IMG/VR virus record: IMGVR_UViG_3300045051_000081
Coordinates: 1-64,000 of that record
Length of the DNA: 64,000 nt
Reading direction: 5' to 3' (one strand)
Source of the DNA: a virus
Under the pieces are notes generated by a model. That model ran no database searches and was not told the origin of the DNA. It worked only from the letters and a program-made list of their open reading frames with translations. Of this stretch, positions 48,687 to 53,217 are shown piece after piece. The position numbers and the translations under genes are program-made. The stretch's first letter is position 1. Every line of letters starts with the position of its first letter.

Positions 48687-50351
48687 TCAGCCAAGAGCCG
48701 GATAGAGCGCAACCGGTGCTCTCACGTACTTGTTCTCATCGATATGATCGAGTTCGTCTTCGTCTGGCATCTGCGCCAGACCGAGTAATCTTAGATGCGC
48801 CAGAGCCTGTGTCATGGCATCAGCGAGGTCGTCATGCTGGCCTTTCGGCAACTCGGCTAGCTCGGTGATCACCTTGTCGGCCCACTCCTTGAAGAGGTAG
48901 TCGCCGTTCCCGGTGCCCTCAGCAGGCGCGTATATCAGCCCGCATTCGAACAGGTTCTGCACCGCATAGGCTCTAGCCACCTTGTCACCCTCAGGATTCA
49001 CAAGCTGGACGCCGAAGTCCGAGCGATCCTGCGTTTTTGGGTTAAAGCTCAGCAAATCCGAGATATGGCGGGCTCTACGGCGCAATTCTTGGGCCACCGG
49101 GTGCCCTGACGCCTTGTCTTCGATCAAAACGCGGTTCACCTTGAATTTTCGGCAGGTTTCCTCGACTTTTTTGATCAAATCATAGAGTTCGAGGCGCTCA
49201 GCCCACGCCCACATGAGAATAAGCCGTCTATTCTCCCACTGATCGCGACAAACACCCAAAACCACCGCCGCCGAGGGGTCATTCTGCTTCTTTTCAGTCT
49301 GCGCAGTGTCCAGACTCAGTACCGTGTAGCTCATCACCGGCAATTTCGGCCACGGGACACCAAATCGCGGGCATTCCTCCGCTGTATAGGGCCGCCAGTG
49401 TTCCCGCTTGATGATTCCGCCGCCACGCGGGGCAGGCCTCTGCTGATACTGCCCCGCATACGCAAAGCTCCCCTTCTCCCTCTCGATATTCGCGACTGCT
49501 TCGGGTGAGAACCTCTCTGGCCACGCTAAATCTCCGTCCTCCGTTCGCGGATCGACCCACCCAATCGTGTTGAAGGGCTCGCGACCCGTCTCAAACTCCA
49601 TCGGCACCATCAAATGACAGTAGGGCCATCCTTGTTCCAAGATGAACCCGGAGATATCAAGCTGATGGACCCGCTGCATGATGATAATAATGGCACTATC
49701 GTCCAGATTATTGAGCCGGTCGGTGATCGTCTCGCGAAACCAGCGCACGGTATCTGTCCTAACGATGTCTGACTCGGACTTGTGGACATCGTGAGGGTCA
49801 TCGATAACGACGCGATCACCTCTTTCTCCAGTACCAATGCCCTTAACGGACGACGCGAACTTGGAGCCCGTCTTGTCGTTCGTGATTTTGATCTCGCCTT
49901 CCTTTTCGAGATTGAATTGGTCACCCCATAGCTCCCTGTACTTGTCGTGCATCACCAGTTTGCGAAATTTGGTGTTGTCACGCTCGGTCAGACCACTCGA
50001 ATACGAGAAACTCACGTAGCGCAGGTGCGCCATGCCCATCGGCCCCCACTCCCATGCGGGCCAAAAGACATTCACCATGAGGGATTTCATGGATCCGGGA
50101 GGGACATTGATGAGAAGTCTCGTGATTTTCCCTAAGGTGACCGCTTCTAGATGCTCACATATGGCGTAGAGCACCCAGCCTTCGACCAACTTGGTCTCGG
50201 GTTCGAGTATGTTCCAGAATCTGCGCACAAAGTCGATCAAACCGCCCGGTCTAGACTGCTTCTTGCGCTCCCTACGAAGCTCAAGCTCCTCCTGCATGGC
50301 CTTAAGCACATCAGGAGCAAGCTCGGGCGCGATATCGACTGCTTCAGTCAT
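48687..50351 (-). CDS. terL: Terminase large subunit
   Basis: 554 aa, the packaging motor ATPase-nuclease. The ATPase has a Walker A-like NVPPGSMKS (82-90) and Walker B VVIDDPHD (181-188). The C-terminal RNase H-like nuclease has LSLDTAQTE (D348), VLIEDKASG (E411, D412) and HDDLADAM (D507, D508, D511). Residues 35-60 form the typical start (FVRRFWNILEPETKLVEGW). GAGAG lies close to the ATG. The guide-like repeat array starts 45 bases upstream of its start, so terL may share a transcript with tas and the array. The small subunit appears to be encoded separately near 57.4 kb. Confidence 0.95.
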   Translation of the reverse strand: MTEAVDIAPELAPDVLKAMQEELELRRERKKQSRPGGLIDFVRRFWNILEPETKLVEGWVLYAICEHLEAVTLGKITRLLINVPPGSMKSLMVNVFWPAWEWGPMGMAHLRYVSFSYSSGLTERDNTKFRKLVMHDKYRELWGDQFNLEKEGEIKITNDKTGSKFASSVKGIGTGERGDRVVIDDPHDVHKSESDIVRTDTVRWFRETITDRLNNLDDSAIIIIMQRVHQLDISGFILEQGWPYCHLMVPMEFETGREPFNTIGWVDPRTEDGDLAWPERFSPEAVANIEREKGSFAYAGQYQQRPAPRGGGIIKREHWRPYTAEECPRFGVPWPKLPVMSYTVLSLDTAQTEKKQNDPSAAVVLGVCRDQWENRRLILMWAWAERLELYDLIKKVEETCRKFKVNRVLIEDKASGHPVAQELRRRARHISDLLSFNPKTQDRSDFGVQLVNPEGDKVARAYAVQNLFECGLIYAPAEGTGNGDYLFKEWADKVITELAELPKGQHDDLADAMTQALAHLRLLGLAQMPDEDELDHIDENKYVRAPVALYPALG

Positions 50352-50396
50352 CGTGTCTCTCTCGAATCACGAGGAGATTATGCGCTCTTGAAAGAT

Positions 50397-51956
50397 GGGT
50401 TGCTTACGGAAGGTGGCACGCTTACCGCGCCGGGGTTTCTAGGCTGTGATGGCACGCTAATGGCTGCTGGGTTGCTCTCATCTGATGGCGCACTAGAACA
50501 CGATGGTGTGCTTTCTAGAGATGGCACGCTAATGCTCTATGGGTAGCTTACCTGACAAGGCGCGCTGTTACGCTCTGGGTTGCTGAAGACGTTTGGCACG
50601 CTGCTGTCGCTTGGGTTGCTTCGTGCATGATGGCACGCTGGTGACGGTTGGATTACTTGAGATCGGTGGCACGCTTGGGCATCTCGGGTTGCTGGTGGAG
50701 GTTGGCACACTAATACTCAACGGATTTCTTAGTCGATTCGGCACGCTGTCGAGGGTTGGGTTGCTTGAGATTTGTGGCACGCTCTCGCTTGCTGGATTTC
50801 TAGTTCTTCTACGACACGCTTCCGGGTTTGGGTTGCTATGGGGCTTGGCACGCTTCGGCGTCTTGGGTTGCTATCTCCTCTTTGGCACGCTTACGCGCAT
50901 CGGTGTTCTGTCAGCGTGTGGCCCGCTTGTAGTGCGTGGGTTACTCGTGCGGAACGGCTCGCTTTTTGACCTTGGGTTACTGGCCTTAACTGGCACGCTG
51001 TCCATGTCTGGGTTACTAAACGACATGTGGCACGCTTTTACCCTCCGGGTTGCTATTTTGAAGTGGCGCGCTCGCCGCATCAGGGTTGCTAGGTGCCGTA
51101 GGCGCGCTAGAAGGTGCGGGGTTACTTGACGACGATGGCACGCTGGTTTGAGGTGGGCTGCTCCTCTAGCTTGGCACGCTGGCCGAATGCGGGTTTCTCG
51201 AAGCCGTAGGCACGCTCTACAGTTCCGGTTTTCTCAGTTTACATGGCACGCTGGGACCACTTGGGTTTCTCTATGACCAATGGCACGCTAGGTAGCGCAG
51301 GGTTGCTTGTTTTTGGTAGCACGTTTATGGGTGTCGGATTTCCGGCTCTTAATGGCACGCTGCTTCAACGCGGTTTACTCCAGCCAAACGGCACGCTGAC
51401 ATTGCAAGGGTTGCTCCGAGATGGTGGCGCGCTATTGGTGCTTGGGTTACTAAGCTTAAGTGGCACGCTCGTCGCATTTGGGTTGCTACTGTACAAAGGC
51501 ACGCTCCTTGCGCTTGGGTTACTGAGATAGAATGGCGCGCTCTATTGGCATGGTTTTCTAGTCAGAACTGGCACGCTTTTGCGCAACGGGTTGCTGGTGT
51601 GGGACGGCACGCTACATTCAACTGGGTTACTTGACGAGCTTGGCACGCTGTGGGTTTTTGGATTACTCATCGCAACTGGCACGCTTGTGGTCTACGGATT
51701 GCTCTTGTCGTAGGGCACGCTTCACGTCGTCGGGTTTTTCGTCTTATGCGGCACGCTCGTCGGGATTGGGTTACTGGTGAAAGTCGGCGCGCTGCTCGAT
51801 CTTGGGTTGCTCTAAGCCTACTGACGCGCTTGCGGTGAACGGATTGCTTATCAGCCGTGGCACGCTCGTTCCAGTTGGGTTGCTCGCACTCTGAAGCACG
51901 CTTAACGTCTGTGGGTTGCTCAGCTAGAGTGGCACGCTTGCCGTTCATGGGTTGCT
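50397..51956 (-). repeat. TIGR-type tandem interspaced guide RNA array (43 A-cores, 44 B-cores)
   Basis: There are 87 consecutive 8-bp cores. On the plus strand they alternate strictly between core B (GGGTTGCT) and core A (GGCACGCT), with start-to-start distance 18 bp. Only eight steps deviate, by one base. The 10-bp stretches between cores all look different. The full period is therefore 36 bp, with two spacers and two distinct repeats, as in TIGR arrays that give 36-nt guide RNAs with two spacers. A is exact in 29 of 43 and B in 18 of 44; B varies mainly at positions 3 and 6 (GG[GAT]TT[GAT]CT). The base before a core is often T. On the tas strand the cores read AGCGTGCC and AGCAACCC. The array fills the whole gap between tas and terL; strand assignment is inferred from tas. 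No continuous reading frame survives. Confidence 0.92.
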
Positions 51957-51961
51957 TACCA

Positions 51962-53038
51962 CTACGCGGCATGTGGCGGCTGACCCATCTTGGCCACCCG
52001 ATAGGGCGCAGTGACACTTAGCCCTTCTTGCTCGCGCCACTTCACCCAGAGATCCGTGAGGAATTGCTTCACCATCACACGGGTGGCATCAGTGTGTATT
52101 CTTCCGGGGGTCCAGTGACGCCGTAGATCTTCTTCGGTCCCCACTCCCGCCTTGAGTTGCTTGTGGAGCTTCTTCCACACCGCAACCGTGACCTTGACCC
52201 GCGTAGGATCCGTGGTGACGCGGTGTTTGCGGTCATCGTAGACCTTGCGCCGGATAGGGCATTTGGAGCGTAAGAATCCGGGGCCGAGAACGCCCATGAG
52301 CTTGGTCTTCAGGAACGGGTTATACGTGACACCCATGCGGGTTTTCATCTCACCGTTTTTCGCACGGTAAGTACGCTCTACGAGGTGCTCTTCCCGGCGT
52401 GAGCGTCCCGAGCCTTTGTCCACGTCCAAGCCTGCGTACTTGTGAAAGCTGGAAGCGTGTCGCGCTTTGCGCGGGTCCAAGTAGGAAATAAGCACGCCGC
52501 CCATGGCGGGGCCGACACCGACCACGTCTTTGAGGTAGTTCCGGTAGATCGGGATCTCCATGAGAGTGCCTTCAAGGTCGCGGAACTGCTTGGCCTCCTG
52601 CTTTTCGAGGGCGAGATAGCTCTCCACCAGCGCCAGTTCAGCAGCGGTACTGATAATCGGCGAGCCGGTCAGGTCCAGCTTCTTCATGAGAACTCTTCCT
52701 TTCTTGGAAGTGATCCCATCCGTGAGGCGCTTGTATTCCGCCTTGATGATCTTGATCACCTTCTTCTTGCGTTTCTCTTCTTTCTTGCGCTCGGCTGCAG
52801 CGGCTTCGTCCTCTTCACTCACTTCCTCGACCACATCTTCCACCGCATCTGGATCGATGTCCACGCGAGGATCATCAGGCTTGTCGAGGTCCACGGCTTT
52901 AAGTCTTGCGCGGAAATTCGCACAGAGGCGTAAACCTGATTGCATGCGTAGTTGCTGGAGATCGTAGGCCCCGCGCACCATGGCGCGGAGCGTGTTGAGA
53001 ATATCGGATTCAAAGACCGTGATTGTAGGCGCACCCAT
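51962..53038 (-). CDS. Tas-like protein (IS110/Nop-related domain, no visible nuclease domain)
   Basis: 358 aa from the ATG at 53038, preceded by AAGGAGTCTGACG; an upstream in-frame start lacks this site. Residues 1-55 are helical. Residues 62-110 are a highly charged linker/coiled coil (EEVSEEDEAAAAERKKEEKR), and 110-165 more helices. From about 163 the sequence matches the Transposase_20 (IS110 C-terminal) pattern: LKDVVGVGPAMGGVLISYL (169-187), FHKYAGLDVDKGSG (198-211), YNPFLKTKLMGVLG (239-252) and HTDATRVMVKQFL (315-327). TIGR-associated (Tas) proteins carry such a Nop/IS110-related RNA-binding domain. No RuvC-like DEDD or HNH motif is seen, so it would be a nuclease-less type. No terminal inverted repeats suggest an IS element. 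Its 3' end touches the guide-like array. Confidence 0.85.
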   Translation of the reverse strand: MGAPTITVFESDILNTLRAMVRGAYDLQQLRMQSGLRLCANFRARLKAVDLDKPDDPRVDIDPDAVEDVVEEVSEEDEAAAAERKKEEKRKKKVIKIIKAEYKRLTDGITSKKGRVLMKKLDLTGSPIISTAAELALVESYLALEKQEAKQFRDLEGTLMEIPIYRNYLKDVVGVGPAMGGVLISYLDPRKARHASSFHKYAGLDVDKGSGRSRREEHLVERTYRAKNGEMKTRMGVTYNPFLKTKLMGVLGPGFLRSKCPIRRKVYDDRKHRVTTDPTRVKVTVAVWKKLHKQLKAGVGTEEDLRRHWTPGRIHTDATRVMVKQFLTDLWVKWREQEGLSVTAPYRVAKMGQPPHAA

Positions 53039-53040
53039 CG

Positions 53041-53217
53041 TCAGACTCCTTCTTTGTGTTTGAGCTTCTCCAATAAGAGCATCCTTGCCCACGAGGAAAG
53101 CTGGAGCCCTTTCCTGTCGGCATCGGATTCAAATCTCACCCGCTCGTCCTCGGTCAGACGCACCACCATGATGGACGTGCGCAGCGACGGCTTTGCTTTT
53201 CGCGGTTTTTTGCTCAT
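53041..53217 (-). CDS. Small ribbon-helix-helix-like DNA-binding protein upstream of tas
   Basis: 58 aa from MSKKPRKAKPSLRTSIMVVR. A basic N-terminal tail is followed by a short strand (RTSIMVVRLTEDE) and two helices (ERVRFESDADRKGLQLSSWA, RMLLLEKLK). This is the layout of MobC/Arc-type ribbon-helix-helix repressors. It ends two bases before the tas start and is certainly in the same transcript. It probably autoregulates the operon through the inverted repeat at 53228-53248 (inference). Confidence 0.72.
   Translation of the reverse strand: MSKKPRKAKPSLRTSIMVVRLTEDERVRFESDADRKGLQLSSWARMLLLEKLKHKEGV

What the first reader, a model, noticed from the sequence alone, without database searches (positions are those of the whole stretch)
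51962..53038. Tas-like protein lacks a visible nuclease domain
The protein has an N-terminal coiled coil and a C-terminal IS110/Nop-like domain but no DEDD/RuvC or HNH signature. In TIGR-Tas terms it would be a nuclease-less type. It could block, regulate or tag targets, or recruit another enzyme. The phage's HNH-like protein (1107-1529) is at the other end of the window and is not an obvious partner. A targeting-only system in a virus might serve to silence host or competing phage genes.
Basis: partly seen in the sequence, partly recalled or inferred. Interest (0 to 1): 0.75.

Follow-up and report, generated by a model that had tools for sequence, protein, structure and literature searches.

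The report
Phage TIGR-TasA: RNA-guided, nuclease-less system
A soil bacteriophage carries a known type of RNA-guided DNA-targeting protein (TasA) that has no DNA-cutting domain, next to an unusually long array of about 43 guide RNAs; close relatives carry nearly the same protein with largely different guides, which makes the open question of what such phage guides target directly testable.

Summary
The minus-strand gene 53038-51962 encodes a 358-aa protein whose modelled fold is a coiled coil plus a Nop/IS110-like RNA-binding domain. Structural alignment to TasH starts at TasH residue 61 and to TasR at residue 108, leaving no room for their N-terminal nuclease domains. It scores above the NCBIfam TIGR-Tas cut-off. 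Directly downstream lies a dual-repeat TIGR array (36-nt period, 43 edge-to-edge units) ending 30 nt before the terminase gene. This is TIGR-TasA, the nuclease-less class that Faure et al. 2025 already call the commonest form: a new member of a known kind. Of 31 homologous viral loci, 29 have an adjacent array; no neighbouring nuclease recurs; no relative was found in 84,980 bacterial and archaeal genomes. New details: the cassette sits at a variable site beside an Acb2 (anti-CBASS) gene upstream of terminase. A close relative (Tas 99% identical, omega 0.03) shares only 13 of 43 spacer pairs, inherited as intact pairs. No target was found in the own genome or in 1.8 Mb of related phage DNA. 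Most likely it is a guide-programmed DNA binder that blocks transcription or replication of host or competitor DNA; DNA binding and role are inferred.

The parts
51962..53038 (-). tasA: 358-aa nuclease-less Tas protein (coiled coil + Nop/IS110-like RNA-binding domain)
52562..53017 (-). predicted coiled-coil part (residues 8-159, with low-confidence linkers 50-74 and 101-129)
   Evidence: structural match to TasH/TasR
51980..52561 (-). C-terminal Nop/IS110-like RNA-binding domain (residues 160-353)
52331..52381 (-). beta hairpin, residues 220-236; possible counterpart of the TasR wedge loop (inference)
   Evidence: wedge loop described in PMC12045711
50382..51956 (-). TIGR array: 44 loop repeats (consensus AGCAACCCA, third base variable) alternating with 43 edge repeats (AGCGTGCCA), spacers mostly 9 nt (8-10), period 36, ending in a truncated edge AGCGC
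53041..53217 (-). 58-aa ribbon-helix-helix-like DNA-binding protein gene (weak NikA-like/DUF6290 match), 2 nt upstream of tasA; also present in relatives without TIGR-Tas
48687..50351 (-). terminase large subunit; the array lies in its 5' leader, probably the same transcription unit (inference)
   Evidence: no terminator or promoter above chance

Best explanation
The locus is a dual-repeat TIGR-TasA system of a soil tailed phage. The array is transcribed together with tasA (and probably terL) and processed into 36-nt tigRNAs, each holding two 9-nt spacers. A TasA dimer binds one tigRNA and, by analogy with TasR and TasH, opens an 18-bp target in which spacer A pairs with one strand and spacer B with the other. 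With no nuclease domain it stays bound and bends the DNA rather than cutting it. The likeliest use is programmable blocking of transcription or replication of host or competing-element DNA, carried as an accessory cassette. Shown here: membership, lack of a nuclease domain, array anatomy, strong purifying selection on TasA, spacer turnover in intact pairs. Inferred: processing, dimerisation, DNA binding, blocking, targets.
For: Full-length structural match to TasH/TasR without their nuclease parts. Profile hits to TasR 9mty (E 8e-26) and TasH 21kl (E 2e-20). NCBIfam NF052498 105.9 bits against cut-off 100. Dual-repeat array adjacent to 29 of 31 homologues. Tas omega 0.033 at pS 0.41. 13 spacer pairs shared with L002 as edge-spacer-loop-spacer units against 1 under the alternative pairing and 0.05 expected for shuffled spacers. 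Cassette at a variable site next to Acb2 homologues. Published: TasA binds 36-nt tigRNAs; TasR/TasH targeting rules (PMC12045711).
Against: No target was found in the own 71 kb or in 1.78 Mb of relatives; real pairs did no better than shuffled pairs. For TasA itself the parts of PMC12045711 read here report RNA binding, not DNA binding. The model has low-confidence linkers. Co-transcription is inferred, because no promoter or terminator stood out.
Confidence: 0.72

Rival explanations
1. TasA is only the targeting subunit and recruits a nuclease or other effector in trans (phage HNH, host enzyme, or a ParB-like partner).
For: Precedent: fibrillarin recruitment by box C/D Nop proteins and tasParB operons in other TasA loci (PMC12045711). 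In one relative, L091, an HNH-endonuclease gene starts 46 nt after tasA.
Against: No Pfam or PHROG family matches more than 3 of 127 neighbour proteins of 15 non-redundant loci, and no nuclease family more than 2. The window HNH-like ORF is 50 kb away, with no family match and no copy in relatives held. No ParB-like gene adjoins tasA here.
Confidence: 0.1
2. The guides act on the phage's own genome or on packaging (for example RNA-guided bending or marking during DNA packaging), as the cassette lies in the terminase leader.
For: Array ends 30 nt before terL, and in L003 abuts its start. tasA lies near a terminase gene in four phage groups (W group, L068, L073, L086).
Against: No spacer pair matches the own 71-kb record or relatives. 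Other tasA loci lie next to polymerase, helicase or reverse-transcriptase genes.
Confidence: 0.1
3. It is an IS110-type RNA-guided recombinase or a degraded transposase.
For: Transposase_20 match and PHROG 4285 'transposase' label; fold match to IS621/ISCro4 from residue 121 on, Z about 13.8.
Against: DEDD domain absent. The column aligned with the probable IS621 catalytic serine is S in only 6 of 26 family members (K, R, Q or H in most others). Closer to TasR and TasH in every search. Strong purifying selection.
Confidence: 0.02
4. Non-functional relic carried near terminase.
For: No detectable targets; heterogeneous repeats.
Against: omega 0.033 with 41% of synonymous sites changed; array kept at 36-nt spacing in 29 of 31 loci.
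Confidence: 0.04

Closest known systems
TIGR-TasA (Faure et al. 2025, PMC12045711)
   Same: Solo Nop-domain protein with coiled coil; adjacent array of two alternating 9-nt repeats and 9-nt spacers, 36-nt unit; mostly viral; no nuclease.
   Different: Array of 43 units (usually 5-15); no terminator seen after the array, which runs into the terminase leader; no ParB-like partner.
TIGR-TasH and TIGR-TasR (PDB 9w04, 21kl, 9mty)
   Same: Same coiled coil and Nop/IS110-like domain over 190-233 aligned residues.
   Different: Lacks the N-terminal HNH or RuvC domain.
IS110/IS621 bridge-RNA recombinases
   Same: RNA-binding domain and coiled coil.
   Different: No DEDD domain; long array in place of one bridge RNA.
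[quoted passage not shown]
   Same: Would work like them: guide-directed binding without cutting, carried by mobile elements (analogy only).
   Different: Unrelated protein and guide layout; no membership claimed.

Membership tests
TIGR-Tas (dual-repeat) | Nop-domain protein with coiled coil | tested here: met
   Model aligns over residues 5-357 with TasH (Z 20.2), 6-356 with TasR (Z 18.0); profile E 8e-26; NCBIfam NF052498 above cut-off
TIGR-Tas (dual-repeat) | Adjacent array of two alternating 8-12-nt repeats interspaced by about 9-nt spacers | tested here: met
   44 loop and 43 edge repeats, 78 of 86 parsed spacers 9 nt; adjacent arrays in 29 of 31 homologous loci
TIGR-Tas (dual-repeat) | Shared box D and box C motifs at the ends of edge and loop repeats | tested here: met
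   In this array both repeats begin AG and end CCA (last base variable); in the freshwater lineages edge AACGAGTCA and loop AGAAAACCA agree less
TIGR-Tas (dual-repeat) | Array ends with truncated edge repeat and rho-independent terminator | tested here: inconclusive
   Truncated edge AGCGC present; no terminator-like site there; 'typical', not obligatory, in the paper
TIGR-Tas (dual-repeat) | Processing to 36-nt tigRNAs bound by Tas | not testable with these tools
   needs small-RNA sequencing of the complex
TIGR-Tas (dual-repeat) | Tandem-spacer DNA targeting, one spacer per strand | not testable with these tools
   needs a binding assay; spacer pairs do evolve as pairs
TasA subtype | No nuclease domain | tested here: met
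   No residues left for one: match begins at TasH 61 and TasR 108; no nuclease model in Pfam, PHROG, PADLOC
IS110 transposase | N-terminal DEDD domain and conserved catalytic serine | tested here: not met
   Aligned part starts at IS110-type residue 121 or later with our residue 5; serine column not conserved, 6 of 26
CRISPR-Cas | Single repeat type with cas genes | tested here: not met
   Two alternating 9-nt repeats, no cas family among the listed neighbours

The most novel reading that the evidence does not exclude
In this phage clade TIGR arrays change their guides by gain, loss and exchange of whole edge-to-edge units among phages, without adaptation genes and without a fixed growing end, while kept guides stay conserved because their targets are. 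This would be a recombination-driven guide turnover distinct from CRISPR adaptation, giving a nuclease-less system a changing target list.
Probability: 0.35. Interest if true: 0.7.

Novelty: new member of a known kind. Interest (0 to 1): 0.42.

Why it matters
TasA is the commonest TIGR effector, yet its function, its targets and the way its arrays grow are all open in the only primary paper found (PMC12045711). This phage family gives what that paper lacked: close relatives with nearly the same protein and different guides, sister phages without the cassette at the same site, and arrays of 36 to 55 units. Spacer pairs inherited as units fix the edge/loop reading of the array from sequence alone. 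The family can be used to look for targets and to study guide turnover. It also warns that NCBIfam would name this nuclease-less protein an 'RNA-guided endonuclease'.

Tried and rejected
Targets as spacer A + reverse complement of spacer B (gap 0-2) in the own window: no better than re-paired controls. Four geometries in 0.82 Mb of relatives: nothing. 439 pairs in 1.07 and 1.78 Mb: 0 and 1 distinct pairs with at most 1 mismatch, controls 4-6. Single pairs in whole collections: 0 hits; 5 hits in 257 Gb, about what chance gives, in unrelated genes; one phage seen twice; 36 contigs for TCACAGCCT/GGCGCGGTA, 35 of them one homologous site in an HNH gene of prophage-like contigs, so one independent site plus one other, not above chance, and 0 of 385 genomes of one class. 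Named phages: no Tas homologue. Host guess from terminase and portal relatives: alphaproteobacterial phages are among the nearest but all under 60% identity, so the host stays unknown. Folding of predicted 36-nt RNAs alone: no stable structure, z near 0. The ribbon-helix-helix gene as a dedicated partner: rejected, since it is present without tasA. PADLOC: no match.

Full report
What is there. The finding's coordinates hold an uninterrupted gene on the minus strand, 53038 to 51962, 358 residues. The record is a 71,071-base IMG/VR phage genome with terminase, portal, major head and Erf-type recombination genes. Five bases after the tas stop codon begins an array on the same strand, 51956 to 50382, made of alternating AGCAACCCA-type and AGCGTGCCA repeats with mostly 9-nt spacers, period 36. 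The terminase gene starts 30 nt after it.

No nuclease. An AlphaFold2 model from a 26-sequence alignment of phage homologues (pLDDT 73, pTM 0.65) shows a long-helix coiled coil followed by a helical domain with one beta hairpin. Foldseek ranks TasH and TasR first. VIA-align gives TasH Z 20.2 over residues 61-301 and TasR Z 18.0 over 108-317, with IS110-type transposases at about 13.8 from residue 121 on. These stand well above the helical background rows (8.6 and below). Since our protein starts where the nuclease parts of these enzymes end, no nuclease domain is hidden. The profile agrees: TasR E 8e-26 and TasH E 2e-20. NCBIfam's TIGR-Tas model is passed at 105.9 bits, cut-off 100.

Membership. 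Faure et al. 2025 (PMC12045711) define TasA as the solo Nop-domain member of TIGR systems, call it the commonest effector and show that it binds 36-nt tigRNAs. The present locus meets the testable features. It is therefore a new member of a known kind. What TasA does is stated there as unclear; blocking transcription or replication, aiding integrases, and ParB-linked roles are proposed.

Relatives. A scan of IMG/VR found 31 loci with homologues at 34-99% identity. 29 of them have a 36-nt dual-repeat array next to the gene; the two without are L083, where the gene starts 77 bases from the contig end, and L092. Several loci are the same phage from different samples. A scan of 84,980 bacterial and archaeal genomes found none, although it rests on two short peptide patterns. 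Named phages gave none.

Site. Among contigs with a related terminase, most lack tas and array but many keep a ribbon-helix-helix gene upstream of terminase, often followed by an Acb2/Tad1-hairpin gene (PF24729; L005 E 1.3e-8, L038 E 2.3e-8, both above cut-off). The tasA-array cassette lies between these and terminase in W, L002, L003 and L005; W and L002 lack the Acb2 gene there. Acb2 and Tad1 are known phage sponges for immune signalling nucleotides (established knowledge), so this is a variable site that also holds counter-defence genes. L038 and L039 carry a different TasA lineage (NF052498 202 bits) with its own arrays, on the opposite strand, a little further upstream.

Partners. No protein family matches more than 3 of 127 neighbours of 15 non-redundant tasA loci. 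One locus, L091, has an HNH gene directly downstream. The HNH-like ORF at 1107-1529 matches no family and no related locus held.

Array dynamics. W and L002 have TasA proteins 99% identical, while 41% of synonymous sites differ (omega 0.033). Their arrays share 13 similar spacer pairs of 43 and 40, six of them identical; the shuffled expectation is 0.05. The distances are two-peaked, 0-4 for shared pairs and near chance for most of the rest. Pairing matters: read as AGCGTGCCA-spacer-AGYAACCCA-spacer, 13 pairs are shared; read the other way, one; and no case has one identical spacer with an unrelated partner. This identifies AGCGTGCCA as the edge repeat and the two spacers as one functional unit. 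The order is partly kept (Kendall 0.72). In other near-identical pairs of phages, differences lie inside the array or at either end (L079/L080, L081/L082, L086/L087), unlike the one-ended growth of CRISPR. Shared spacers differ at 14 of 234 positions and their repeats at 27 of 234, but the pairs were chosen by spacer similarity, so this comparison is biased and only suggestive of selection on guides.

Targets. With the published rule (spacer A plus reverse complement of spacer B, gap 0-2; the orientation was worked out here from the reported 8-nt 3' overhangs), no target appears in the window, in 1.78 Mb of relatives plus the genome's last 7 kb, or convincingly in collection scans. The most notable exact match, a pair shared by W and L002 against a conserved HNH-endonuclease site in 35 prophage-like contigs, is one independent site and within chance. 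These searches accept at most one mismatch and sample only part of the possible targets, so they do not show that targets are absent. Spacer GC is 0.51 against 0.60 for the phage, unexplained.

Mechanism. By homology TasA should dimerise, hold one 36-nt tigRNA and open an 18-bp target with one spacer per strand; without a nuclease it should remain bound. Blocking host or competitor DNA fits the lack of self-targets, the changing guides, the conserved protein and the accessory counter-defence site, but binding, blocking and target identity are inferred, not shown.

Noticed in passing
L005 7443-7670 (+), L038 6363-6668 (+), L003 1128-1352 (+): Acb2/Tad1-hairpin (anti-CBASS/anti-Thoeris type) gene directly upstream of the tas/terminase site in many relatives; absent in the window phage and L002.
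   Followed up: partly
L038 4723-5529 (-), L039 5157-5963 (-): A second, distant TasA lineage (268 aa) with its own arrays near the same terminase site in sister phages, on the opposite strand.
   Followed up: partly
window 51962-53038 (-): NCBIfam NF052498 would name this nuclease-less protein 'TIGR-Tas system RNA-guided endonuclease'; the model covers only the RNA-binding part.
   Followed up: yes
L068, L073, L086 and the window group: tasA and array lie close to terminase genes in four phage groups; L068 and L073/L086 terminases match different profiles.
   Followed up: partly
L091 6904-7968 (+): HNH-endonuclease / restriction-alleviation-like gene starts 46 nt after tasA, the one case of an adjacent nuclease.
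   Followed up: no
window 50382-51956 (-): Spacers have lower GC (0.51) than the phage (0.60); the same holds in most related arrays.
   Followed up: no
L157-L192 (one homologous site in 35 contigs): Spacer pair TCACAGCCT/GGCGCGGTA (shared by window and L002) matches exactly, with a 2-nt gap, a conserved HNH-endonuclease coding site in many prophage-like contigs; one independent site, within chance.
   Followed up: yes
L003 2733-2805: Neighbouring units share the same first spacer (AGTGTGATC) but differ in the second, a hint of unit duplication with exchange of one half.
   Followed up: no
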